This document shows, one piece after another, positions 600-10,354 of a stretch of 10,617 nt of DNA. Every line of letters starts with the position of its first letter. The first letter of the stretch is position 1. A model generated the notes under the pieces. That model saw only the letters and a program-made list of their open reading frames with translations. It ran no database searches and was not told the origin of the DNA. Source of the DNA: Mycobacterium sp. (lineage in GTDB: Bacteria; Actinomycetota; Actinomycetes; Mycobacteriales; Mycobacteriaceae); assembly GCA_018500005.2 (NCBI GenBank), contig JAHBAP020000337.1, positions 1 through 10,617 on the forward strand, given 5' to 3'. Both the position numbers and the translations under genes were made by a program.

Positions 600-1202
600 G
601 TGAGCTTGGAAACCCCCCTTGATCGCCGCAGACGCCGCACCCACACCGCTGTGCTTGACGCGGCCGAACGGCTCTTCGCGCGCCACGGCTATCGGGGAAC
701 CACCATCGAGGCCCTGGCAGAAGACGCCGATGTGGCGGTCAGTTCCATCTATTCCAACTTCACCGGCGGCAAGCCCGACGTGTATGCCGCGCTCGCGTGG
801 CGCATCGCGCAACGTCACGCCGAGCAGATGCAACGCGGCGGTGCGGGCGCGCTGGCCCATTTCGATAACTACGTGGCCTTTCACCACGACAACCCCTTGG
901 CGGTACGCCTCCTCGGCCTGCACGACGTGGCCTCGCAGGATTCCGAACTGGTTCTCAAGGCACGCGCGCAGATCACGGCACTGCTGGACAGCGTCGTCGA
1001 GCGGGTGACCGCCGCTGTCGCGGAATCGGATTGCGACGCCGACCCGCGAGCCCTGGTTCTCTACCTCTGGGCCGGTGTCAACGGCATGTTCTCGCTGCGC
1101 CAACGCGGCATCGTCGATGACGCGACTCTGCGCCAGATGCTGGCCATCGCCCGCAGCGACCTGAGCTTGCACTTTCGCCGCGGCGACAACGCGCGCGCGT
1201 GA
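600..1202 (+). CDS. TetR/AcrR-family transcriptional regulator (TetR1)
   Basis: The 200-residue protein has the usual TetR length. Its N-terminal helix-turn-helix domain spans about residues 12-65: TAVLDAAERLFARHGYRGTT, then an ALAEDADVAVSSIYSNF recognition region. The remaining helical part would bind a ligand and dimerise. The frame is open upstream to 462, but the GTG at 600 is chosen because it places the HTH near the N-terminus and coincides with a predicted leaderless transcription start. The gene is followed after 42 bp by HD hydrolase 1 on the same strand. It is the likely local repressor of the HD/membrane protein/P450 unit and perhaps of the divergent DUF1272 gene. The ligand cannot be predicted. 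The family call is firm; the start is less certain. Confidence 0.9.
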   Translation: MSLETPLDRRRRRTHTAVLDAAERLFARHGYRGTTIEALAEDADVAVSSIYSNFTGGKPDVYAALAWRIAQRHAEQMQRGGAGALAHFDNYVAFHHDNPLAVRLLGLHDVASQDSELVLKARAQITALLDSVVERVTAAVAESDCDADPRALVLYLWAGVNGMFSLRQRGIVDDATLRQMLAIARSDLSLHFRRGDNARA

Positions 1203-1244
1203 ACTCACGCGCCAGGAGATTCGAATCGACCAGGAGGTCCCGTT

Positions 1245-1952
1245 ATGACAACCCCTGAACCTCCCCTGGCCGTCATCAGCAGATTGGGCCGTGCGCAACT
1301 CGAGCAGAGCCTTCGCCGAGCCGCCCGCCGCATCGGCCGGAACCGACCGGAGGCGTTGGCGCTCAACACCATTGACTACCCGGACACCGCAGTCGCCCTG
1401 GAAGCGGCCTCGCTCCTGCGCGGCCAAGCCCCTACCGTCCTGGCCGCCCACTGCTACCGCACCTACCTCTTCGGTGCCGCCCTGGGGACGCGCGACGGAC
1501 TGCACTGGGATCCCGAGGCGCTGTTCGTCGCAGCGATGCTGCACGACCTCGGCCTGACCGAGTACATCGCCGGCCAAGGGCCCTTCGAACAGCGCGGCGC
1601 CGCATCCGCCGAATCCTGGCTACTCAAACAGGGCTGGCCCGATGAGCGGGCGGGCATCGTGGCCAAGGCGATCCGGATGCACCTCGACGTCGGGCGCGCC
1701 GGCAAAGAACGGCCCGAGGTGGCACTCCTGCACTTCGGCGCGGCCGCCGATGTCACCGGAATTCGCCTGGAGGACATCCACCCGCACACCATCGAAGAAG
1801 TGCTCGACTCCCACCCCCGCGAAGGATTCAAGCGGTATTTCGCCGACAAAGTCCGACGCGAGGCCCGGGCCTACCCCCGGTCGGCCACCGCGTCCCTGTG
1901 CCGCTGGGGCCAGTTCCCCTGGCGCATCGAACATTCCCCGTTCGCCGAATGA
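1245..1952 (+). CDS. HD-domain metal-dependent hydrolase 1, cyanamide hydratase-like
   Basis: The protein has 235 residues and a near-perfect Shine-Dalgarno sequence (AGGAGGT, 1232-1238) 6 nt before ATG. It carries an HD-type metal site: H69 in AAHCYRTYLFG, H100-D101 in AAMLHDLGL, H146 in AIRMHLDVG and D169 in AAADV. HD proteins are metal-dependent phosphohydrolases or hydratases. The H...HD...H...D layout with the YRTYLFG segment resembles the cyanamide hydratase branch (Ddi2-like) rather than nucleotide phosphohydrolases, but this comes from motif memory and the substrate is unknown. A second copy with the same spacing is encoded at 8672-9442. The gene lies between TetR1 and a membrane protein whose start is only 7 nt downstream, so translational coupling is likely. 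It is probably cytosolic, with no signal peptide visible. Confidence 0.8.
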   Translation: MTTPEPPLAVISRLGRAQLEQSLRRAARRIGRNRPEALALNTIDYPDTAVALEAASLLRGQAPTVLAAHCYRTYLFGAALGTRDGLHWDPEALFVAAMLHDLGLTEYIAGQGPFEQRGAASAESWLLKQGWPDERAGIVAKAIRMHLDVGRAGKERPEVALLHFGAAADVTGIRLEDIHPHTIEEVLDSHPREGFKRYFADKVRREARAYPRSATASLCRWGQFPWRIEHSPFAE

Positions 1953-1959
1953 GGCGGAG

Positions 1960-2388
1960 ATGAACTCGGCGATCACGACCGCGACTTCGGTCACGTTCTG
2001 CGCGGCCGGCCTGACCTTTCTGCTGGCACTGGTGCTCGGGGTCTGGAAATACCGGCAGATGGCCACCAGCCCCGATCACCGTGCCCATCCCTACGTCGAC
2101 ATCGCCCACCGCTCAGCGCTGCTGTATTCGTTCGCCACCGCATTGGTGGCGGTGTTCGTCCAACTCAGCGCCTGGCCGCAGTGGGTCAATCTGGCAGCCG
2201 CGATGACACTGGTCGTCTTCTTCATCGGCGCGATCGCCAGTTACATCCTCCACGGCGCCAAGGGCGAGATCACCAACCAGTTCGCCCACCCGGGCCCCGG
2301 CCTTCATGCGGCGATGATGGCCCTGATCCTCGCCGAGATCGGCGGCTTCGCCGTGTTGTTCTCGGGCTTCCTCCGAAGCTGGCTCTGA
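1960..2388 (+). CDS. small four-helix integral membrane protein, unknown function
   Basis: ATG at 1960 follows the HD1 stop by 7 nt, with GAGG at 1951-1954. The same frame is open far upstream inside HD1, but only this start gives a clean membrane protein. The 142 residues contain four hydrophobic segments, at roughly 8-29, 52-70, 74-97 and 115-138. A conserved-looking polar motif HPYVDIAHR (43-51) leads into helix 2, and HG (98-99) and NQF (106-108) follow helix 3. I do not recognise a characterised family. The size, the four helices and the AH at the start of helix 2 recall styrene-oxide isomerase and hydroxylaminobenzene mutase, which are membrane enzymes; this is a weak, topology-level resemblance. 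Position between an HD hydrolase and a P450 suggests it acts on, or transports, the same compound. Confidence 0.75.
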   Translation: MNSAITTATSVTFCAAGLTFLLALVLGVWKYRQMATSPDHRAHPYVDIAHRSALLYSFATALVAVFVQLSAWPQWVNLAAAMTLVVFFIGAIASYILHGAKGEITNQFAHPGPGLHAAMMALILAEIGGFAVLFSGFLRSWL

Positions 2389-2452
2389 ACAACGACAGCC
2401 CTTGACGTCGTGAGCCGATATCACAGTCACAACAACACATTCGGGAGACTTC

Positions 2453-3844
2453 GTGACTGACATGCCGGGTCCCGCGGGCGCCGCAACAGCACCACCCATT
2501 GCACGTGACTCGCCGCCGTCCTCGATGCTCCCGCGCGCACTTTTCGGGCTGGGCTTCGTGACCAACCGCCGGCGCGCTCTGGACCTTCTGGTCAAGACAA
2601 CAGGCGGGTGCGTGAGCGTACGGGTTCCGGTGTTCGGTGACACCGTTGTGGTCGCCGACCCTGGGTTGGCCAAACAGGTCTTCACCACCAGCCCCGAGGT
2701 ACTGCACAACGTGCAACCCAACCTCTCGCGGGTATTCGGCCCTGGGTCGGTGTTCGCCCTCGACGGCGCCGAGCACCGCCGGCGACGCAAACTGCTCACC
2801 CCGCCATTCCACGGCAAGAGCATCGCCGCCTACGAACGCATCGTGGAAGAGGAGACGCTGCGCGAGATCGCGAACTGGCCGGAAGGCAAGGAATTCGCGA
2901 CCCTGGAACCGATGATGCGCATCACCCTCAATGTCATCCTGCGCGGGGTATTCGGCGCCGACGGCATCGAGCTGGAGCAGCTGCGCGATGTCCTGCCGCA
3001 ATGGGTGACATTGGCATCCCGGCTCGCGCTGCTCCCCATTCCGAAGCGTCCGATCGGCCCCTGGGACCCGTGGGGACGCCTGGCCGGCTACCGGCGTACC
3101 TATGAGTCTCTGGTCGACACCCTCATCACCCGCGCCCGTCAGGACCCCCGGCTTGAGGAACGCACCGACATCCTCGCGCTGTTCCTGCGCAGCCGATACG
3201 ACGACGGCACCGCGATGACCCGAGGCGAGATCGGCGACGAGTTACTCGCCCTGCTGGCCGCCGGCCACGAGACCACGGCCTCGACCCTGGGGTGGGCGTT
3301 CGAGCGCATCTCCCGCCACCCCGAGATCCTGCACCGACTGGTCACCGAAGCACACGGCGACCAGAACACCTACCGGCAGGCGACCATCCTGGAAACTCAG
3401 CGAGTCCGCACGGTCATCGACCTCGCCAGCCGACACGTCGCTGTGTCGGACTACGAACTGGGCCCGTGGAGCATCCCCCGGGGCCACACGATCATGGTCA
3501 GCCTGCGCCAACTGCACGAAAACCCCGACGAATTCCCCGAACCCGACCGGTTCGACCCCCAGCGGTTCATCGACAACAAGCCCAACGCCTTCTCCTGGGT
3601 GCCGTTCGGCGGCGGCACCCGCCGCTGCGCCGGAGCGGCCTTCGCCACCATGGAAATGGACGTCGTACTGCGAACCGTGCTGCGCAACATAACCATTCAG
3701 ACAACAGACAAACCGGATGAGAAAATCCACAACCGCGGTGTGGCGTTCACGCCCAGCCGCGGTGGCCGCATCGTCGTGCACCGCCGACCCACACGTCACC
3801 GGCCCCGGCCAACACGGCCCGACAAATCAGATCAGACCGCGTAA
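2453..3844 (+). CDS. cytochrome P450, CYP138-like
   Basis: This 463-residue heme monooxygenase starts at GTG, 5 nt after GGGAG (2443-2447). All P450 signatures are present: I-helix oxygen-activation motif AAGHETTA (269-276), K-helix ExxR as ETQR (314-317), PERF-like region DRFDPQRF (365-372), and heme loop FGGGTRRCAG (385-394) with C392 as the iron ligand. Segments such as NVQPNLSRVFGPGSVFALDG, PPFHGKS and the heme loop closely recall M. tuberculosis CYP138 (Rv0136), whose substrate is unknown. The Arg-rich tail from about residue 444 is longer than I expect. No N-terminal membrane anchor is visible. It needs ferredoxin and ferredoxin reductase partners, and none is encoded here. It is 64 bp after the membrane protein and probably in the TetR1 unit, although a separate promoter in the gap is possible. 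Confidence 0.95.
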   Translation: MTDMPGPAGAATAPPIARDSPPSSMLPRALFGLGFVTNRRRALDLLVKTTGGCVSVRVPVFGDTVVVADPGLAKQVFTTSPEVLHNVQPNLSRVFGPGSVFALDGAEHRRRRKLLTPPFHGKSIAAYERIVEEETLREIANWPEGKEFATLEPMMRITLNVILRGVFGADGIELEQLRDVLPQWVTLASRLALLPIPKRPIGPWDPWGRLAGYRRTYESLVDTLITRARQDPRLEERTDILALFLRSRYDDGTAMTRGEIGDELLALLAAGHETTASTLGWAFERISRHPEILHRLVTEAHGDQNTYRQATILETQRVRTVIDLASRHVAVSDYELGPWSIPRGHTIMVSLRQLHENPDEFPEPDRFDPQRFIDNKPNAFSWVPFGGGTRRCAGAAFATMEMDVVLRTVLRNITIQTTDKPDEKIHNRGVAFTPSRGGRIVVHRRPTRHRPRPTRPDKSDQTA

Positions 3845-3944
3845 CGGCGGAGGCCTCGCTGATCACTGAATCCCGTCGCCCGTCACGCCGATGCACAAAC
3901 ACAAACCGGCAGAATCCATTTCGCCCCTACGAAGTAAGGACATC

Positions 3945-4343
3945 ATGGCGACCACCCGGCTTGCACACGAACCTGAGGATTTCGCTGCGGCGTTCGCCGC
4001 GACCTTCAACCGGGGCGATCTCGACGAGATCGTCGCGGGCTACACCGAGGATGCAGTCCTGAATCCCGGCGGCGCCAACGTGATGCGCGGACATGCCGAG
4101 ATCCGCATGGCACTTGCCAATTTCCTCGCGCCGCGTCTGCCGATGACGGTCACCCCGGGCACCCACATTGTCTCCGGCGACACGGCGCTGGTGACATTCG
4201 ATTGGGTCATCGAAGGAAAGGCCCCAGACGGGCAGCAGATCCTGATGCAAGGCAGCGCGGTCGACGTTCTTCGCCGCGGCCCAGACGGTTACTGGCGGCA
4301 GTTACTGGACCTCCCGTTCGGCACCGCGACCCGGCCTGGGTGA
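3945..4343 (+). CDS. SnoaL/NTF2-like fold protein (SgcJ/DUF4440 type)
   Basis: The 132-residue protein reads FAAAFAATFNRGDLDEIVAG, then YTEDAVLNPGG, MRGHAEIRMAL, SGDTALVTFDW and GYWRQLLDLPFG. This is the helix, helix, then curved-sheet order of small SnoaL-like proteins. Such proteins act as isomerases, cyclases, hydrolases or ligand binders, so the fold alone does not give a reaction. ATG at 3945 is preferred over the in-frame ATG at 3891 because AAGGA (3936-3940) lies 4 nt upstream and the protein then begins at the normal family position. It follows the P450 by 100 bp on the same strand and is the last gene before a convergent pair. It may process the P450 product, which is inference from context. 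Confidence 0.8.
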   Translation: MATTRLAHEPEDFAAAFAATFNRGDLDEIVAGYTEDAVLNPGGANVMRGHAEIRMALANFLAPRLPMTVTPGTHIVSGDTALVTFDWVIEGKAPDGQQILMQGSAVDVLRRGPDGYWRQLLDLPFGTATRPG

Positions 4344-4375
4344 CCGCTCGCACCCATTGTTGCGGACAGCGCCGA

Positions 4376-4389
4376 GCCCGTCGTCGGGC
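4376..4389. terminator. hairpin in the convergent intergenic region
   Basis: GCCCG (4376-4380) and CGGGC (4385-4389) form a perfect 5-bp stem with a TCGT tetraloop. It lies 33 bp after the SnoaL-like stop and before the end of the oppositely oriented Ddn-like gene. No T tract follows, so bidirectional termination is plausible but unproven. Confidence 0.3.
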
Positions 4390-4445
4390 ATGGCGAGGCC
4401 ATTCCGGACAGGCAGGCACCGGCGAGGCGATGCATTCAGCTGGGA

Positions 4446-4460
4446 CCCCTTTCGCTGGGG
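4446..4460 (-). terminator. possible hairpin after the Ddn-like gene
   Basis: CCCC (4446-4449) and GGGG (4457-4460) enclose 7 nt. On the minus strand this lies 18 bases after the Ddn-like stop. The stem is short and has no T tract. Confidence 0.2.
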
Positions 4461-4478
4461 AGGGGAGACGCTTGGGTT

Positions 4479-4979
4479 TTAGCCGCCAATCAGCCGAATG
4501 ATGGGAATCGTCCGCCCGGTTTCATCGGCACGTCTGCGGTATTCGGCATATGGCGGGTAGACGCGGTCAGCCAGGTTCCACAGTCGCGTTCTCTCGCTTG
4601 TATCGGTGATGAGTTCTGCGTGATACGGATGGCCGCCAAAGGTGACTTGCGGGTGCGCGCGGAGGTTGTGGTACCAGGCGGGGTTGTTGGCGAGTCCGAA
4701 CATGGATGCCACGATGACGGGGTGCTGGCCGTCGTGGAAGTAGAGGACGGCGTTTTGGCGCGGTTCGCCGCTTTTCGCGCCGGTGGTTTCGAGTACGGCC
4801 GTTGCGAGCGGTCCTCCTGCACCGATGCGTCCGCGAGTGATGCGCATGAGTGCTGGGTCTAGGCGGGCGATGTACTTGCGCGTGAAGGCCCCGACAGTTT
4901 TGGTGCCGATGAGTTGTGCCCACATGTAGTAGGCGCGGCTGCGTTGCGCGAAGGGGTCTACGTAGGGAAGCGACGACAT
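4479..4979 (-). CDS. nitroreductase-family deazaflavin (F420)-dependent oxidoreductase, Ddn-like
   Basis: The 166-residue protein belongs to the Ddn/DUF385 split beta-barrel group, which uses reduced coenzyme F420 to reduce quinones, nitro compounds and other xenobiotics. Visible signatures are VLETTGAKSGEPRQNAVLY (62-80), the phosphate-contacting region, HPVIVASMFGLANNPAWYHNL (86-106) and HPQVTFGG (109-116). ATG at 4979 is chosen because AAGGA (4992-4988) lies 8 nt before it and the N-terminus then has family length; the frame is open 22 codons further. It follows the isomerase-like gene by 46 bp on the same strand and is probably the last gene of the TetR2 operon. F420 dependence supports an actinobacterial, likely mycobacterial, host. 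The substrate is unknown. Confidence 0.9.
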   Translation of the reverse strand: MSSLPYVDPFAQRSRAYYMWAQLIGTKTVGAFTRKYIARLDPALMRITRGRIGAGGPLATAVLETTGAKSGEPRQNAVLYFHDGQHPVIVASMFGLANNPAWYHNLRAHPQVTFGGHPYHAELITDTSERTRLWNLADRVYPPYAEYRRRADETGRTIPIIRLIGG

Positions 4980-5025
4980 GGGGCAGGTCCTTCTACTGGG
5001 TGAGCAGGCCGAGCGCTGAACGGGC

Positions 5026-5688
5026 TTAGCTGATGGCCGCTGCAACGAGGGCGGTGACTGCGTTGCGGTACATGGTGTTCTTGATAGCCCCGAGGGTGCC
5101 GGGGTCCTTGCCGGCGATGGAAGTCATCCGAGTGAGCGCAGCGTCGATGAGGTCGGCTTCGGTGGCGGTGTCGTCAACCAGTGCGGCAACTTTGGCTTCC
5201 GGGCCGCCGAAGCGGTGACCGGTGGTCATCGCGGTCACTGCGGTTTGCGGGGTGAGCTTGGCCTGGATCAGTGCGGCCATTCCGGGGGTGAACGGAATTC
5301 GGATGTCCACTTCGGGGAAGCAGTAGTACCCGCGGTCGGACCGCATGATGCGGTAGTCGTGGGCGAGGGCCAGCATGGCCCCGGCGCCGAAGGCGTGTCC
5401 ATTGACTGCGGCCAGGGTGGGTAGCGGGAAGGTGAGGATGCGGGCGAAGAGTTTCTGGACGGTGCCGACGTACCATTCGCCGCGGTCGGTGTTGGCGGTG
5501 AGCCAGTCCAGATCCAGCCCGTAGGAATAGAACTTGCCCACGCCGGTGGTCACCAGCGCCTGCGCTTGGGTCTCGACGGTGTCGATGTGGGCGTTGATGG
5601 TGTCCAGCCATTCCGCGGAGAAGCGGTTCTCGTCGGTGCCCAACTCGAGGACGGCGACTGTGCCGCGGAAGTTGAGTGTCGGTGTCAT
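5026..5688 (-). CDS. enoyl-CoA hydratase/isomerase family protein, delta3-delta2-enoyl-CoA isomerase-like
   Basis: The 220-residue crotonase-fold protein is shorter than typical hydratases (about 260). The two oxyanion-hole segments are visible: KFYSYGLDLDWL (52-63) and NGHAFGAGAMLALAHDYRIM (96-115). FPEVDIRIPFTPGM (124-137) follows. A single Glu at 126 in the PEVDI motif aligns with the catalytic Glu of plant and animal enoyl-CoA delta-isomerases (SEVDI), and I see no second Glu of the hydratase type, so isomerase activity on 3-enoyl-CoA esters is more likely than hydration. ATG at 5688 has AAGGAG 6 nt upstream and overlaps the TetR2 stop in an ATGA, indicating translational coupling. The C-terminal helices look complete to a normal TAA. 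Confidence 0.88.
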   Translation of the reverse strand: MTPTLNFRGTVAVLELGTDENRFSAEWLDTINAHIDTVETQAQALVTTGVGKFYSYGLDLDWLTANTDRGEWYVGTVQKLFARILTFPLPTLAAVNGHAFGAGAMLALAHDYRIMRSDRGYYCFPEVDIRIPFTPGMAALIQAKLTPQTAVTAMTTGHRFGGPEAKVAALVDDTATEADLIDAALTRMTSIAGKDPGTLGAIKNTMYRNAVTALVAAAIS

Positions 5689-6341
5689 GTTGGTCTCCTT
5701 CGTTTCCGGATCGGCTGCTGTCGGACCGGTGGCGGGCCGACTTCTAGGACTGCGCGCACTGCTGCTGAAAGTCGTTGCCGGGCCGGGAGATCGGTTGTCC
5801 GGTTTCCGCGCAGAAGCAGAGCACCGGGTAGCTCGACGATGCATTCCCGCATCACTCCGATGGCGTGACGGTCGTCGCGGTCCCACAACCGTCGCGCCAG
5901 CTGGGCGAAGAGATCCCCTAGGAGCTTGTCGAGCGTGCGCAGCCCGGTGGCGACGTCCGCCGGGATGTCACTGGATCCGATCAATTCATCGCGGCGAACG
6001 GTGAGAAGGAAGCGGCCGCCCGTCGGGTATTGCTCAAGATAAATCGCCGGCGCGTCAGCGGCGACGACCACCGCCTGCACGGCCGCCTCGCCCGACGGGG
6101 AATTCGATAGCGTCGCCTCGACCGCCTCGCGCTGCAACAGCAGGAATCGTTCGGCGGCACGCAACCACACACGGCCTAACAGGCCGGCTCGGGAACCGAA
6201 CCCGTGATAGATCGCCCCATTGGACACCCCAGTGGTCGCCGAAATCGCGCGGATGGTCACCGCACTCGGACCCGACGTGACTGCCAGTCGCTCGGCGGCA
6301 TCCATGACAGCGTCGAGATCATGAACGCGGGGACGAGGCAC
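5685..6341 (-). CDS. TetR/AcrR-family transcriptional regulator (TetR2)
   Basis: The 218-residue protein has an N-terminal HTH domain at about residues 8-58: LDAVMDAAERLAVTSGPSAV, then IRAISATTGVSNGAIYHGF. The rest is helical with a basic tail (RKRRRPT). The frame is open to 6548, but GTG at 6341 is chosen because it places the HTH normally and because an operator-like palindrome and a promoter lie directly upstream; coding through those is unlikely. The TGA overlaps the isomerase-like ATG by 4 nt, so regulator, isomerase and Ddn-like protein form one operon with the regulator first. The palindrome at 6352-6373 predicts autorepression relieved by a ligand, perhaps an acyl-CoA or the reductase substrate; the ligand is inference. 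Confidence 0.9.
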   Translation of the reverse strand: MPRPRVHDLDAVMDAAERLAVTSGPSAVTIRAISATTGVSNGAIYHGFGSRAGLLGRVWLRAAERFLLLQREAVEATLSNSPSGEAAVQAVVVAADAPAIYLEQYPTGGRFLLTVRRDELIGSSDIPADVATGLRTLDKLLGDLFAQLARRLWDRDDRHAIGVMRECIVELPGALLLRGNRTTDLPARQRLSAAVRAVLEVGPPPVRQQPIRKRRRPT

Positions 6342-6351
6342 GCAGCCACCA

Positions 6352-6373
6352 TAACAGAGCGGTTGCTCTGTAA
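6352..6373. promoter_or_regulatory. palindromic operator of the TetR2 operon
   Basis: ACAGAGC (6354-6360) and GCTCTGT (6365-6371) are perfect 7-bp inverted arms around GGTT. They extend outward to T6352/A6373, giving 8 of 9 paired positions over 22 bp. The site ends 11 bp before the TetR2 GTG and overlaps the predicted -10 box and start point. Arm length, spacing and place are those of a classical TetR operator. Confidence 0.75.
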
Positions 6374-6400
6374 TTAAGATCGCGAATACCGAATTGACAA
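6372..6400 (-). promoter_or_regulatory. predicted promoter of the TetR2-isomerase-Ddn operon
   Basis: On the minus strand TTGTCA (6400-6395) resembles a -35 box and TTAATT (6377-6372) is a loose -10 box, with a 17-bp spacer. Transcription would start near 6365, inside the palindrome, leaving a leader of about 24 nt. The -10 match is imperfect. Confidence 0.4.
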
Positions 6401-6596
6401 ACGCGGGGACCGAACCGCCGGCCCGCGGGAGTTGGCTGGACAAAATCACGATGTGAACGGGTCCGCTGAAGGACAAGAGGCCCCGCGCGGCGGATTCGCG
6501 AAAGGGGGCCAAATCTAGAGAGCGTCCCTGGCGAGGAAAAACCGCCACCGCGCTGATGGCCAGGGAACTCGAGGCCGTGGCGGCGGAATCCGGTCA
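6401..6596. other. intergenic stretch between divergent TetR2 and TetR3 genes; possible relic
   Basis: Most of the 367 bp between the two regulator starts lacks a recognisable gene. A plus-strand frame is open from 6457 to the TGA at 6598-6600 and its last part (TALMARELEAVAAESGH) looks protein-like, but it has no start signal and no family I recognise. It may be the end of a deleted gene or chance. The outer parts hold the TetR2 and TetR3 control regions. Confidence 0.3.
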
Positions 6597-6626
6597 TTGA
6601 CAGATTTCTAGTGTTCCTTCTAAGTT
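6597..6626 (+). promoter_or_regulatory. consensus-like promoter for the TetR3 operon
   Basis: TTGACA (6597-6602) is a perfect -35 hexamer. TAAGTT (6621-6626) fits TANNNT, with an 18-bp spacer. The start would be near 6633, leaving a leader of about 76 nt to the TetR3 GTG. The surrounding 70 bp are clearly richer in A/T than the flanking genes. Confidence 0.6.
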
Positions 6627-6669
6627 TGGAGATGGCGCTAAGAAAGTTTCGGAGATGTCGTCAAGAAAG
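6623..6669 (+). repeat. tandem imperfect direct repeat, candidate TetR3 operator pair
   Basis: Two copies of a 24-25-bp unit lie head to tail at 6623-6646 and 6645-6669. Each begins AGTTT, has GGAGATG in the middle and ends AAGAAAG; 21 of 24 aligned positions agree, with one 1-bp indel. The period of 22-23 bp is close to two helical turns, so bound proteins would sit on the same face. Copy 1 overlaps the -10 box and start point. A looser GGGGATG at 6676-6682 may be a third trace. Confidence 0.55.
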
Positions 6670-6708
6670 AGGCGTGGGGATGCGGCGCGGTGAACACGAG
6701 GCTCTGCG

Positions 6709-7425
6709 GTGACCGGGCTGCGCGAACGCAACAAAGCCAAGCGCCGCACCGCGATTCTCGACGCCGCCGTCGAACTGCTTGCCGAGGCCCCGTGGGCCGA
6801 GGTGACGACCGAACGGATCGCCGCCCGCGCCGAGGTAGCCTCGGCCACCGTCTACAACCTGGTGGGAACCCGCGACCAGTTACTGGTCGCACTGGTCGAA
6901 CGGGTCCTGGACTCGGTGGCCGGCGGGATCACCGGCCCGGACTGGCCGATGGACGGGGACCCGCTGACCATCGTGCGCCGGGTGGTCGACGACTCCACGG
7001 CCGCGTTCACCGCCGAGTCGGCGGCGTTTCGGCGCGTCGTAGTCGCACTGCGGCTGGTTACCGGAGCCGGCGGGTCGGTCGATCTCGATCCGGCCCGGCT
7101 GCAGATCGCGGGTATGCGGGAGGCACAGCGAGCAGGCGTACTCGACCCCCGATTCGCCCCGGAGGCGTTGGGGCGCCAGGTCTACCTCAGCTATATCGGG
7201 GCCATGCAGGCGTGGGCTGATGGCGATCTCGACGACGACGGCTTCGCGGTGATGACCCGCCACGGACTGGTTGCGGTGCTGGCGGCCACCGCGCTGCCCG
7301 CGCACCGGGACGCCCTCGTCATGGAGTTGCACCAGTTGTCCCGGCAGGCCGCGTCCTGCTGGCGCCACTGTCCCGGCACGCAGCAGTCCGAAGCCACGAC
7401 GATCACCGAGGAGCACAGCCGATGA
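6709..7425 (+). CDS. TetR/AcrR-family transcriptional regulator (TetR3)
   Basis: The 238-residue protein starts at GTG, 7 nt after GAGG (6698-6701). Its HTH domain (about residues 10-62) reads KRRTAILDAAVELLAEA, then TTERIAARAEVASATVYNLV and GTRDQLLVALV. The ligand-binding half is rich in Ala, Val and Leu. The Thr/Glu-rich tail overlaps the dehalogenase gene: TGA at 7423-7425 shares 4 nt with its ATG. This puts regulator and dehalogenase on one message and implies coupled translation. The upstream promoter and tandem repeat fit autoregulation. The inducer may be a halogenated substrate or its alcohol product, which is inference from the neighbour. Confidence 0.92.
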   Translation: MTGLRERNKAKRRTAILDAAVELLAEAPWAEVTTERIAARAEVASATVYNLVGTRDQLLVALVERVLDSVAGGITGPDWPMDGDPLTIVRRVVDDSTAAFTAESAAFRRVVVALRLVTGAGGSVDLDPARLQIAGMREAQRAGVLDPRFAPEALGRQVYLSYIGAMQAWADGDLDDDGFAVMTRHGLVAVLAATALPAHRDALVMELHQLSRQAASCWRHCPGTQQSEATTITEEHSR

Positions 7426-8336
7426 CCCAGGTAATGCGTACATCCGACGACCGGTTCGCCGACCTGCCCGACTTCGGCTGGGCGCCGCGTTATGTCGAAG
7501 ATCTCGACGGCTTCGACGGCCTTCGTATCGCTTACCTTGACGAGGGGCCGGCCGACGCCGCGCACACCTTTCTGTGTCTGCACGGCGAGCCGACGTGGGG
7601 TTTCCTCTACCGCAAGATGATCCCCCCGTTCCTGGCTACCGGGGCGCGGGTCGTGGTCCCCGACTTCCTCGGATTCGGGCGATCCGATAAGCCCGTCGAT
7701 GACGCCTTCTACACCTTCGACCGCCACCGCAACACCCTGCTGGCGCTGATCCGGCGACTCGACCTGCACGCCGTTACCCTGGTCGTCCAGGACTGGGGCG
7801 GACTGCTCGGGTTGACCCTGCCCGTCGATGCGGACATGCGGGGACGCATCACCCGGCTGATCGTGATGGACACCGCGATCGCCGTCGGCGAATCCCTGGG
7901 CGAGGGTTTCGACAACTGGCGGATGTTCTCCTCGATGACCGAGGACATGCCAGCCGGGCAACTGCTGTCGCAGTCCGAGCCCTACCTGACCGCCGCCGAG
8001 GCGGCGGCCTACGACGCCCCGTTCGAGGACGCCCGGTTCAAGGCCGGGGTGCGGATGTTCCCGAAACTGGTCATGACCGAACCCGGAATGGGCGGGGTCA
8101 CCGAGAGCCGACAAGCCGCGAAGTTCTGGCGCGACGACTGGCAGGGCCCCACGTTCATGGCCTGTGGGGCAACGGATCCGGTGTTTCCGCCCGACCACAT
8201 GCGCGCGCTGGCCGCCCAGATCAACGGCTGCCCCCCTCCGCTGGTGATCCCCGACGCCGGCCACTTCGTCCAGGAGCGGGGCGACATCGTCGCCGCCGCG
8301 GCCCTGGATCACTTCAATGGACAAATCCACGGTTGA
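7422..8336 (+). CDS. haloalkane dehalogenase, subfamily HLD-I (DhlA/DhmA-like)
   Basis: The 304-residue alpha/beta-hydrolase hydrolyses carbon-halogen bonds to an alcohol, halide and proton (EC 3.8.1.5). The layout matches Xanthobacter DhlA closely: oxyanion motif HGEPTW (54-59), nucleophile D124 followed by halide-binding W125 in VVQDWGG, second halide-binding W166 in EGFDNWRMF, acid D252 in MACGATDPVF, and base H281 in DAGHFVQE. An acid after the cap, in line with DhlA D260, is the HLD-I arrangement. Other shared segments are YDAPFEDARFKAGVRMFPKL and INGCPPPL. The cap is complete and no residue is missing. GAGGAG (7408-7413) lies 8 nt before ATG, inside the end of TetR3. A related epoxide hydrolase is less likely because the two Trp residues are intact. 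The natural substrate is unknown. Confidence 0.92.
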   Translation: MTQVMRTSDDRFADLPDFGWAPRYVEDLDGFDGLRIAYLDEGPADAAHTFLCLHGEPTWGFLYRKMIPPFLATGARVVVPDFLGFGRSDKPVDDAFYTFDRHRNTLLALIRRLDLHAVTLVVQDWGGLLGLTLPVDADMRGRITRLIVMDTAIAVGESLGEGFDNWRMFSSMTEDMPAGQLLSQSEPYLTAAEAAAYDAPFEDARFKAGVRMFPKLVMTEPGMGGVTESRQAAKFWRDDWQGPTFMACGATDPVFPPDHMRALAAQINGCPPPLVIPDAGHFVQERGDIVAAAALDHFNGQIHG

Positions 8337-8356
8337 CACCAACCACCCGTGCGGGA

Positions 8357-8373
8357 GAACATGAGTCATGTTC
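8357..8373. repeat. 17-bp perfect palindrome after the dehalogenase gene
   Basis: GAACATGA (8357-8364) and TCATGTTC (8366-8373) are perfect 8-bp inverted arms around a single G. The element lies 20 bp after the dehalogenase stop and contains the first ATG of the GNAT relic. It could be a protein-binding site inside the operon or mark a deletion junction. A hairpin is impossible without a loop, so a DNA-level role is more likely. Confidence 0.45.
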
Positions 8374-8675
8374 GCGTTTACCATCGGCAAGCAGGTCGGT
8401 CGATGACCGCACTGGTACCTCCGGTGATCGGCAGCGACCCAATGGTGCGCGGCGGCGGATTCGGCCAAGCGTTGATGACCGCGGGATTGAGTCGGCGCGA
8501 CGCCGAACACGCACCTGCGTACCTGTAGTCCAGTGAGCCCGCGAATGTCCCTTACTACGAACGACTCGGGTCTGAAGTCACAGGAGAAACCGTGGTGCCG
8601 AACGGACCGACGTTGATACCGATGTCGCGCCGCGCTTGGTTTGATCCCCGTGTCGACCGCGAGGTCTCGCGGTGA
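8361..8675 (+). pseudogene. decayed GNAT-family N-acetyltransferase (C-terminal half, in-frame TAG)
   Basis: About 105 codons remain, from ATG 8361 or 8403 to TGA 8673-8675. The C-terminal half of a GNAT acetyltransferase is readable: PPVIGSDPMVRGGGFGQALM is the acetyl-CoA-binding loop (family form often GRGLGSALL), then RRDAEHAPAYL, a TAG stop at 8526-8528, and SSEPANVPYYERLGSEVTG, ending PNGPTLIPMSRRAW. The TAG sits where the family has Glu (YLESS), so a single G-to-T change of GAG explains it. The N-terminal half, about 80-100 residues, is missing. The final TGA shares 4 nt with the GTG of HD2, which shows the gene was once an intact member of the operon. It could survive as a short peptide, but catalytic activity is unlikely. 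Confidence 0.75.
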
Positions 8676-9442
8676 ACACCCGCCCCGACCCCAACCGCAT
8701 CGGCGGCTTCGAATGGACCCAACGCACCAAGGGGCAGCTCACCCGCCGAGAGCGGCTGCAACTGCTCGGCTCCTTGGTCACAAGTCAGCGCGACTTTTTC
8801 CTCCATAGACTTCGCCGTGAACGGCCCTCCGCCACTACCCGGTCAGGCGATCGGGACATCCAACCGCCCGACAGCCGGTTCGCCCGAGAGGTGCAGGCGG
8901 CCGCCGCCGAGCAGAACCAGGTGATCCTCACTCACAGCTACCGGTCGTGGATCTTCGGGCGCGCACTAGCAGGTGTCGACGGCATCAATGTCGACGACGA
9001 GCTGTTGTTCGCCGGAACCTTGCTCCACGACCACGGCATCGAGTTGGTGGTGCCCGGCGAGGACTTCACCTTGCGCAGCGCCCGCCGCGCCATCGAGTGC
9101 GCCACCGCGACCGGAGTGAACGGCGAGCGGGCTGCGGCCTTGGCTGACGCCATCACCGTGCACACCACCCCGGGAGTCACCATCGAACGCGACGGTGCGC
9201 TCGGGTACTACATCCAGAACGGCGCCCTGGTAGACATCGCCGGCAACCGAATCTGGGATCTGTCCCAGACTCTGATCGACGACACACTGGCCCATTACGA
9301 CCGGCGCGGTTTGACCCACGGACTCGGAGGCCACATCATCGCCGAGGCGAAAGGCGTTCCCCGCGGCCGTTTCTCGCTGCTGCGTAAATGCGGCTTTGTC
9401 CAATTGATGCAAATGGCACCCTTCGACAGGGATTCCAAATGA
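8672..9442 (+). CDS. HD-domain metal-dependent hydrolase 2, paralogue of the 1245-1952 product
   Basis: The 256-residue protein starts at GTG 8672, 7 nt after GAGG (8661-8664), and overlaps the GNAT relic stop by 4 nt. The HD site reads H88 in LTHSYRSWIFG, H119-D120 in GTLLHDHGI, H164 in ITVHTTPGV and D188 in GALVDIAG. The spacings (31, 45 and 24) nearly equal those of HD hydrolase 1 (31, 46 and 23), and both carry a Tyr-Arg...Phe-Gly segment right after the first His, so they are members of one family. HD2 is about 20 residues longer at the N-terminus. The substrate is unknown; resemblance to the cyanamide hydratase branch is tentative. Position in the dehalogenase operon suggests action on a dehalogenation product or co-substrate. 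Confidence 0.8.
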   Translation: MNTRPDPNRIGGFEWTQRTKGQLTRRERLQLLGSLVTSQRDFFLHRLRRERPSATTRSGDRDIQPPDSRFAREVQAAAAEQNQVILTHSYRSWIFGRALAGVDGINVDDELLFAGTLLHDHGIELVVPGEDFTLRSARRAIECATATGVNGERAAALADAITVHTTPGVTIERDGALGYYIQNGALVDIAGNRIWDLSQTLIDDTLAHYDRRGLTHGLGGHIIAEAKGVPRGRFSLLRKCGFVQLMQMAPFDRDSK

Positions 9443-9477
9443 CCGCCACCGCGCTCGACCCGACAGGCCCAAAATGA
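9439..9477 (+). other. 13-codon coupled mini-ORF, possible deletion scar
   Basis: ATG at 9439 overlaps the HD2 TGA (ATGA), and the reading frame MTATALDPTGPK ends in a TGA overlapping the ATG at 9474 (again ATGA). Two consecutive 4-bp overlaps around such a tiny frame suggest either a coupling peptide or the leftover start of a gene whose body has been deleted. Chance cannot be excluded. Confidence 0.3.
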
Positions 9478-9737
9478 GTTTTCACAAACCGGCGTCATTG
9501 TTGGAATTGGACATCTTCGCCGGAGTCCACGAGCACGACAACTTCTGCCGGATCCAGGACGTCCTTCCGACGACCTCGCTCGAACCATCCTCCAACGCAC
9601 AGCACTGGCCGAGCGCCGATCCGGTGGCACCGCCGAGGAACCACACCGTCCCGGGCGCGTACCAATCCTTGGGACGCCCGCTTTCCTGCGGGCGATCGCC
9701 GAATCTCTGCCGGCTTGAGAACGAAAGGGGAACGTGA
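9474..9737 (+). pseudogene. 5' fragment of a probable serine hydrolase (beta-lactamase class C-like) gene
   Basis: The 87-codon frame starts MSFHKPASLLELDIFAGVHE, then HDNFCRIQDVLPTTSLEPSS and WPSADPVAPPRN. This order (a D...HxNF segment, LPT, P-rich linker) recalls the N-terminus of actinobacterial serine hydrolases of the beta-lactamase/CubicO type. That family is 350-450 residues long and carries its SxxK motif further on, so the catalytic part is absent here. After about residue 62 the resemblance ends, and the tail (PLSCGRSPNLCRLENERGT) looks out of frame. A competing frame in the same strand ends PILGTPAFLRAIAESLPA before a TGA at about 9716 and is equally protein-like over its last 50 codons, so a second gene end may be fused here. 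The TGA of this frame overlaps the TetR4 GTG by 4 nt. Confidence 0.45.
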
Positions 9738-10354
9738 CCCAGTCCAGCCCCGCGCACCTGCGCCGCTACCCCAGCCAGCAGCGCAGCCGCGAGCGCGTCG
9801 AACGCATCCTGGATGCGGCGGCAGCCATCGTGGTCGAGGAGGGAGTGGACAACCTCAAGGTCAGCGATATCGCCAAACGGGCGGGCGTGCCACTGGGAAC
9901 GCTGTATCAGTTCTTCGCACGCAAGGACGACATCATCTTCGCACTCGCACAGCGGTTCGCCGACCGGTTCGGCGACGTCCTCCAAACTAGCTTGGCCCAC
10001 CTCGACCCGGACGTCGGTTGGCGTAGCCTGCTCGACCGTCTGCTGGACGCCTATGCATCCCATTACCGCAGCGAACCGGCCCTTCGCGAGTTATGGGTGG
10101 GAGCGCGCCTTGATCCGGAATTCATCCATGCCGACCACCAGAACAACAACACCCGATTCGCCAGCGTCGTCGCCGACCTGCTGGCCGCCAAATCTCGGGT
10201 TCCGCGAAATGAACTGGCGCTGATGATCTATATCTGTTGGGAAGCCAGTCAGGCGCTTCTTGAAACGGCGTTCCGGGCCGACCCAAACGGTGATCCGGCG
10301 ATCATCGAGCAGACCAAAATCATGGCGGCACGGTACCTTTCGCCGGCATTTTGA
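9734..10354 (+). CDS. TetR/AcrR-family transcriptional regulator (TetR4)
   Basis: The 206-residue protein starts at GTG, with GAAAGGGG (9723-9730) just upstream. The HTH domain spans about residues 21-70: VERILDAAAAIVVEEGVDNL, then KVSDIAKRAGVPLGTLYQFF and ARKDDIIFALA. The helical ligand-binding part has a Trp-containing segment (LRELWVGARLDPEF) common in regulators of this size. It follows the hydrolase fragment with a 4-nt overlap and may be transcribed with the TetR3 operon, or from an undetected promoter in the 9443-9733 region. It has no intact target gene downstream in the window, so its regulon cannot be assigned. It may have controlled the truncated hydrolase. Confidence 0.9.
   Translation: MTQSSPAHLRRYPSQQRSRERVERILDAAAAIVVEEGVDNLKVSDIAKRAGVPLGTLYQFFARKDDIIFALAQRFADRFGDVLQTSLAHLDPDVGWRSLLDRLLDAYASHYRSEPALRELWVGARLDPEFIHADHQNNNTRFASVVADLLAAKSRVPRNELALMIYICWEASQALLETAFRADPNGDPAIIEQTKIMAARYLSPAF

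What the first reader, a model, noticed from the sequence alone, without database searches (positions are those of the whole stretch)
1245..9442. Two paralogous HD-domain hydrolases, one in a P450 operon and one in a dehalogenase operon
The proteins at 1245-1952 and 8672-9442 share the same metal-site layout (H, HD 31 residues later, H 45-46 later, D 23-24 later) and the same Tyr-Arg...Phe-Gly motif after the first His, yet sit in two separately regulated units 7 kb apart. The HD branch resembles cyanamide hydratases, which add water to a C-N triple bond. A repeated HD partner beside oxidative and dehalogenating enzymes suggests that the HD proteins perform a common step on products of different upstream enzymes. 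As far as I know this pairing is not a described pathway.
Basis: partly seen in the sequence, partly recalled or inferred. Interest (0 to 1): 0.7.

Follow-up and report, generated by a model that had tools for sequence, protein, structure and literature searches.

The report
Two separately controlled cyanamide-hydratase-like enzymes
This stretch of a Mycobacterium genome carries two distantly related enzymes built like yeast's cyanamide-detoxifying enzyme, each apparently switched on by its own regulator; one belongs to a conserved gene set that sometimes includes a P450 enzyme, while the other only happens to lie next to a dehalogenase gene.

The parts
600..1202 (+). TetR1, TetR-family regulator (longest ORF starts at 462, TTG; GTG at 600 fits better by my reading); first gene of the HD1 unit here. 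It stands where the relatives have a different, divergently read TetR.
   Evidence: Pfam TetR_N 44.5 bits, TetR_C_33 27 bits; 30-33% identical to the TetRs of the six other TetR-bearing HD1 loci, which are 81-90% identical to each other
1195..1212 (.). Perfect-armed 18-bp palindrome GCGCGTGAACTCACGCGC over the TetR1 stop, 32 bp before HD1; candidate operator only
   Evidence: one of six such 8-bp-arm sites in the window, the HD2 one included, so weak on its own
1245..1952 (+). HD1, Ddi2-type HD-domain metalloenzyme, 235 aa
1960..2388 (+). Small membrane protein (MEMB), 142 aa, no Pfam family; 7 bp behind HD1 (membrane nature read from its hydrophobic stretches)
   Evidence: in the operon of 7 of 8 HD1 loci; a homologue in 105 of 198 genus genomes, own included; no Pfam hit
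2453..3844 (+). Cytochrome P450 of the HD1 operon
   Evidence: PF00067 203.7 bits; in 3 of 8 HD1 loci, monophyletic
3891..4343 (+). SnoaL-like (NTF2-fold) protein, last gene of the HD1 run
   Evidence: SnoaL_2 51 bits. L118 and L145 also carry a SnoaL-like gene, but it is barely similar to this one (28% over 90 aa, E 0.009, and no match)
7422..8336 (+). Haloalkane dehalogenase (HLD); overlaps TetR3 (6709-7425) by 4 bp. Judged NOT part of the HD2 unit.
   Evidence: NCBIfam PRK00870 309.1 bits, cut-off 265
8358..8372 (.). Palindrome AACATGAGTCATGTT, probable TetR4 operator of the HD2 unit
   Evidence: upstream of HD2 in 5 of 5 HD2+TetR4 loci; once in the held own assembly; expectation about 0.001 per 3.35 Mb from base composition. 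In the window alone it is not striking: 27 of 200 shuffles hold a 13-base core with up to 2 mismatches.
8373..8675 (+). Broken GNAT-like reading frame with an in-frame TAG at 8526-8528; its final TGA overlaps the HD2 start codon
   Evidence: the piece after the TAG matches Acetyltransf_10 at E 0.0076, below its cut-off; the piece before it (8337-8525) matches nothing
8672..9442 (+). HD2, Ddi2-type HD-domain metalloenzyme of the second clade, 256 aa
9734..10354 (+). TetR4, partner regulator gene of HD2
   Evidence: TetR_N and TetR_C_22; a 76-78% identical partner at all four other HD2 loci

Best explanation
HD1 and HD2 are two anciently separated members of the Ddi2 (cyanamide-hydratase-like) branch of HD metalloenzymes, each the enzyme of its own TetR-controlled, probably inducible unit. 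HD1 belongs to a mosaic operon of some environmental mycobacteria: TetR, RidA, HD1, small membrane protein, optional P450, DUF4345, normally read from twin 19-bp palindromes; in the window another regulator, TetR1, stands in its place and the twin palindromes are missing. HD2 forms a unit with TetR4 behind a 15-bp palindrome; the dehalogenase came to lie upstream by chance. Proposed mechanism: a small toxic compound, or a metabolite of it, releases the TetR repressor; the HD enzyme, with one metal held by His-His-Asp and an open coordination side, adds water to a small C-N electrophile (nitrile, cyanamide-like or imine-like); in the HD1 operon the P450 produces or oxidises the compound and RidA clears imine by-products. 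SHOWN by computation: fold class, conserved three-ligand residues, gene partners, conserved palindromes. INFERRED: TetR binding, inducibility, metal, hydration chemistry, substrate class, roles of P450 and RidA.
Against: Both proteins miss the NCBIfam cyanamide-family cut-off (71.5 and 32.3 bits against 109.85), and T157 of Ddi2 is Ala here, so the substrate is probably not cyanamide. The window's own HD1 copy has neither the twin operators nor RidA nor DUF4345. The membrane protein and the P450 belong to families common across the genus without HD1. L068 has the twin palindromes but no TetR beside them. No result bears directly on metal, substrate or TetR binding.
Confidence: 0.5

Rival explanations
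1. HD1 is a dedicated partner of the operon P450: the P450 oxidises a nitrogenous substrate (for example to an oxime, nitrile or imine) and HD1 hydrates the product. HD2 has an unrelated substrate.
For: The three operon P450s form one clade (100/99, stem 0.16) although P450s of this family occur in 238 of 248 genus genomes, and none of the 29 best-scoring other loci carries HD1 within the 1.5 kb held on each side. One P450-bearing locus, L090, lies in the sister group of the other HD1s, so the P450 may be ancestral. RidA in the same operon at 5 of 8 loci points to imine chemistry.
Against: At 4 of 7 readable HD1 loci no P450 was found, and the operon persists without it, so HD1 should have a use of its own. 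RidA and P450 occur together at only one locus, L068.
Confidence: 0.2
2. One reading: HD proteins perform one common step on products of different upstream enzymes, the P450 for HD1 and the dehalogenase for HD2.
For: Same fold branch and same three-ligand residues; HD proteins of either side of the tree occur beside the same TetR and DUF4345.
Against: HLD within 5 kb of an HD gene: 0 of 86 (named relatives), 1 weak of 32 (genus sample), 0 of 26 (HD2-like). P450 within 5 kb: 5 of 86 (at four loci, one of them the HD1 orthologue L090), 1 of 32, 0 of 26, against 2 P450s in 400 kb of arbitrary genus regions. HD2 has its own palindrome and TetR.
Confidence: 0.06
3. HD1 and HD2 are ordinary mononuclear HD phosphohydrolases (nucleotide or phosphomonoester).
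For: The characterised HD superfamily is largely phosphohydrolases (recalled, and passages of PMC8177086); some relatives are named metal-dependent phosphohydrolase by their sources (P0106, P0116). HD1 passes the Pfam HD cut-off (23.5 against 22).
Confidence: 0.15
4. HD1 and HD2 are di-iron HD oxygenases like PhnZ or MIOX.
For: One extra invariant His (H146/H164) follows the HD dyad.
Against: The oxygenase motif needs two further His (H...HD...H...H...D, passages of PMC8177086); only one is invariant here.
Confidence: 0.03

Closest known systems
Yeast Ddi2/Ddi3 cyanamide hydratase (PDB 6dk9, 6dka, 6dkd)
   Different: 20-23% identity; T157 replaced by Ala; TetR units instead of the yeast promoter; activity untested
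NCBIfam TIGR03401, HD domain protein, cyanamide hydratase family
   Same: Best-matching NCBIfam model for both (E 6.9e-20 and 6.8e-8)
   Different: Both far below the curated cut-off (71.5 and 32.3 against 109.85), as are the five HD relatives tried (42.7-80.9 bits)
Rid/YjgF family imine or enamine deaminases (RidA)
   Same: A YjgF-like gene precedes HD1 at 5 of 8 loci, a fragment at one of them (Pfam YjgF_endoribonc 77.4 bits)
   Different: Absent from the window; a 46% relative lies elsewhere in the assembly; the L086 gene is below the NCBIfam TIGR00004 cut-off (29 against 106.25)
TetR-autoregulated detoxification cassettes (general kind, recalled)
   Same: HD2-TetR4 pair with one palindrome 44-50 bp before the enzyme gene at four of five loci
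   Different: The enzyme is an HD hydratase-like protein; in the window the palindrome is 313 bp away, beyond a broken GNAT-like frame; at L070 a beta-lactamase-family gene lies between HD2 and TetR4

Membership tests
Ddi2-type (cyanamide-hydratase-like) HD enzymes | Ddi2 fold over most of the chain | tested here: met
Ddi2-type (cyanamide-hydratase-like) HD enzymes | Three-residue metal site H...HD with no Asp at the fourth position | tested here: met
   Invariant H69/H100/D101 and H88/H119/D120; fourth position Ala, Thr, Ser or Cys in 97 of 97 distinct aligned sequences. By alignment; no metal seen.
Cyanamide hydratase in the strict sense | NCBIfam TIGR03401 curated cut-off of 109.85 bits | tested here: not met
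   71.5 and 32.3 bits
Cyanamide hydratase in the strict sense | Thr at Ddi2 position 157 | tested here: not met
   Ala166 in HD1, Ala185 in HD2; what T157 does is a prediction in the review
Cyanamide hydratase in the strict sense | Turns cyanamide into urea | not testable with these tools
   needs an assay
Canonical mononuclear HD phosphohydrolase | H...HD...D with Asp as fourth ligand | tested here: not met
   Ala at the position of Ddi2 T157, which is said to replace that Asp; D169/D188 align with Ddi2 D160, not named as a ligand. Alignment only.
Di-iron HD oxygenase (PhnZ, MIOX, TmpB) | H...HD...H...H...D | tested here: not met
   Only one further invariant His after the dyad
Pfam HD (PF01966) | Gathering score of 22 bits | tested here: inconclusive
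   HD1 23.5 (met); HD2 16.0 (below)
Haloalkane dehalogenase (window 7422-8336) | NCBIfam PRK00870 cut-off of 265 bits | tested here: met
   309.1 bits

The most novel reading that the evidence does not exclude
The HD1/HD2 families are a bacterial class of TetR-inducible Ddi2-like hydratases for small C-N electrophiles other than cyanamide, a counterpart of yeast DDI2/3. In the HD1 operon a dedicated P450, a RidA and two small membrane proteins form a previously undescribed pathway that makes and clears such a compound, and the same TetR/DUF4345 scaffold accepts HD enzymes of either clade.
Probability: 0.2. Interest if true: 0.65.

Novelty: new variant of a known kind. Interest (0 to 1): 0.42.

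Why it matters
Ddi2 is the only lyase named in the passages that I read of a review of HD proteins. Two conserved bacterial clades with its fold and three-ligand residues but another residue at its Thr157 suggest that the branch is wider than cyanamide. The two kinds of palindrome give testable handles: an inducer screen on each TetR would point to the substrate, which has otherwise been open to guesswork.

Tried and rejected
HD2-HLD operon: rejected (335-bp gap, conserved palindrome in between, no recurrence). The promoter and terminator scan of 8200-8750 found nothing either way. General P450 association of the HD family: rejected. The control there is 20 arbitrary 20-kb regions from 10 genus genomes; it is not matched to the other taxa. 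P450s and HLDs were sought with a profile or query grown from the window's own genes, so distant ones may be missed. Recent duplication of HD1/HD2: rejected by the tree (124 rows; named-loci HDs thinned to every third locus number, HD ORFs of 330 aa or more left out; root at the midpoint). Carriage of HD1 by viruses: 314 pattern matches, none encoding a relative; HD2 was not tried there. Plasmids: only matches under 60% identity (64 records for HD2, 115 for HD1), not pursued. More operons with an L118-like HD: 1 hit in 394 class genomes at E 1e-35, without the TetR, SnoaL or DUF4345 neighbours. Membrane protein as a P450 or HD partner in general: rejected, other neighbours recur; one of them, at 17 loci, looks like DNA polymerase IV by my own reading. 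SnoaL as a conserved HD1 partner: rejected, only the window has it among the 8 loci and it is hardly similar to those of L118 and L145; the 299 and 289 bits come from a profile that contained those genes, and the same holds for the TetR and DUF4345 scores in that call, so I rest on the pairwise figures. TGTTG-type operator in the window: none at up to 3 mismatches with a 20-base pattern that has one N more than the 19-base site, and none at up to 2 mismatches with the 19-base pattern. At L118 none was found and at L145 one site with 2 mismatches. MIOX or PhnZ structures did not appear among the rows shown; this absence proves nothing. Literature: searches for cyanamide hydratase with HD domain, HD domain with Mycobacterium and cyanamide (40), cyanamide hydratase alone (65), RidA with cyanamide (71), HD domain with P450, RidA and TetR (72), DUF4345 (98), Ddi2 with cyanamide and metalloenzyme (99), haloalkane dehalogenase with HD domain and P450 (100): no title or abstract start listed describes this operon. 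I read passages of PMC8177086, PMC13274452 (a DUF4345 gene is mentioned at the edge of the N-nitroglycine cluster, no HD gene) and PMC12239629; the Ddi2 structure paper itself is not held.
Full report
WHAT IS THERE. The window is contig C448 of a 3.35-Mb assembly, 72% complete, in a genus whose other held members match records titled Mycobacterium (G288:C70, 7112 bp, has the length and the HD1 position of VERS01000102, Mycobacterium sp. ZLKRG49). On the + strand lie TetR1, HD1, a small membrane protein, a P450 and a SnoaL-like gene (600-4343). On the - strand follow an F420-type reductase, an enoyl-CoA hydratase and TetR2. Then, on the + strand, come TetR3-HLD (4-bp overlap), HD2 and TetR4.

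OBSERVATION. The motif layout and the YR...FG stretch are as described, and the proteins are homologous: 30% over 232 aa, profile-profile E 5.7e-80. The tree puts them in two deep clades (split 100/96 at the midpoint root), each with its own relatives, so they are old paralogues and not a local duplication.

FOLD AND SITE. Models of both are confident (pLDDT 94.4 and 94.5). Yeast Ddi2 is the nearest solved structure by a wide margin and the only strong relative by sequence profile. Ddi2 holds zinc with H55, H88 and D89, and T157 stands where other HD proteins have their second Asp (passages of PMC8177086). The T157V chain fixes the numbering; counting back gives H137, which meets H146 of HD1, and from there the alignment runs without gaps, so that T157 meets A166 and D160 meets D169. 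That position is Ala 38, Thr 9, Ser 1 in 48 HD1-side rows and Ala 46, Ser 2, Cys 1 in 49 HD2-side rows: 97 distinct sequences, none with Asp (the 59-row alignment also held 11 of the HD2-side rows). That rests on alignment; I had no coordinates to measure.

HD1 NEIGHBOURHOOD. Eight distinct loci with HD1 at 70% identity or more were found in what was searched (window, L066, L067, L068, L069, L086, L087, L090). L068 and L069 come from one genome; L088 and L089 repeat L069 and L067 and were not counted. The named sources are two Loclat bins, one ErkenSummer bin (lake names, as I recall) and two Mycobacterium sp. ZLKRG assemblies. Gene content: membrane protein 7 of 8 (cut by the contig end at L087); DUF4345 5 of 8; RidA 5 of 8 (a fragment at L069); P450 3 of 8 (window, L068, L090; L087 not readable beyond the membrane protein). 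One TetR, 81-90% identical between loci and divergently read, is at 6 of the 7 loci outside the window (none at L068); the window's TetR1 is 30-33% identical to it. Two 19-bp palindromes, TATTG-N9-CAATA and TGTTG-N9-CAACA with small variations, lie 47-48 bp apart just before or at the start of the first operon gene at 7 of 7 loci outside the window, at 1 mismatch or fewer; none in 2.54 Mb of other fetched loci, some of which overlap; none in the window. Start codons of the TetRs are uncertain; the longest ORF runs over the palindromes at L067 and L090. The window's HD1 unit has TetR1 on the same strand and a weaker candidate palindrome at 1195-1212. The three operon P450s form their own clade although relatives reach E 1e-80 in 238 of 248 genus genomes, own included; none of the 29 other loci examined carries HD1 in the 1.5 kb held on each side. 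Nocardioides L118 and Kribbella L145 have TetR - HD - SnoaL-like - DUF4345 with a TetR 56-61% and a DUF4345 51-52% identical to those of HD1 loci, while their HD proteins share only 36% and 33% with HD1 and fall on the HD2 side of the tree. So the regulator has kept company with HD genes of both sides.

HD2 NEIGHBOURHOOD. HD2 at 67-79% identity was found in four other genus genomes of 296 searched (G284, G047, G120, G167; broken into two frames in G167). All four have TetR4 at 76-78%, at L070 with one gene between, and AACATGA-N-TCATGTT 44-50 bp before HD2. The window has it 313 bp before, followed by a broken GNAT-like frame. The 15-mer occurs once in the held assembly (expectation about 0.001) and, at up to 1 mismatch in its 13-base core, upstream of none of 21 distinct relatives of 33-48% identity. 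In the window alone a 13-base core with up to 2 mismatches is not rare (27 of 200 shuffles); the weight lies in its recurrence. None of these loci has an HLD. HLD has one relative at the cut-off used, in 197 other genus genomes, without an HD gene nearby.

WIDER FAMILY. Of 86 HD genes at 80 named loci, 5 (at four loci, one of them L090) have a P450 within 5 kb; of 32 at 28 loci taken from the matches that came with a locus, 1; of 26 HD2-like (one place fetched twice), 0; 20 arbitrary regions held 2 P450s in 400 kb. Recurrent neighbours among 134 loci are DJ-1/AraC (GlxA-type) regulators (18 loci), cupins (13), nitroreductases (11) and second HD genes (9).

MECHANISM. See Best explanation. The TetR units, the three-ligand site and RidA suggest inducible clearance of a small C-N electrophile. 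Fold, residues, partners and palindromes are shown; everything chemical is inferred.

VERDICT. Known fold branch, two uncharacterised clades, one conserved operon and two kinds of conserved palindrome that I did not find described in the searches listed under Tried and rejected. The proposed P450/dehalogenase pairing holds for half of the claim only.

Noticed in passing
window 8373-8675: Broken GNAT-like acetyltransferase frame with an in-frame TAG, lying between the HD2 palindrome and HD2; its last stop overlaps the HD2 start codon. At the four other HD2 loci the palindrome is 44-50 bp from HD2.
   Followed up: partly
window 600-10354: Four TetR-family genes in under 10 kb (about 600-1202, 5685-6548, 6709-7425, 9734-10354), each beside a different enzyme unit.
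   Followed up: no
L068 712-1367 and L066 203-885: VapBC-like toxin-antitoxin pairs, by my reading of the ORF starts, on the contigs of two HD1 operons; at L068 the pair sits where the TetR would be expected.
   Followed up: no
L069 4896-5141: RidA-like gene reduced to 81 aa beside an otherwise intact HD1 operon; a second HD1 operon (L068) is in the same genome.
   Followed up: no
L168-L195: The 142-aa membrane protein family is widespread in the genus (105 of 198 genomes), with His43, His50 and His98 kept in at least 97% of 35 rows (three of them repeats), and has no Pfam family.
   Followed up: partly
L074-L084, L224-L227: HD2-like proteins (about 43-48% identity) of several mycobacteria sit in a recurrent group with an esterase (13 loci), a metal-type P-type ATPase (11), a Rieske oxygenase on the other strand (10) and a polysaccharide deacetylase-like gene (7).
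   Followed up: partly
G017:C13, G058:C47, G051:C193, G031:C1, L099: Pairs of HD paralogues about 1-3 kb apart recur in mycobacteria.
   Followed up: no
L066-L090 against L118 and L145: The HD1-operon TetR keeps 56-61% identity across families while the HD proteins beside it share only 33-36%: the regulator is far better conserved than the enzyme.
   Followed up: partly
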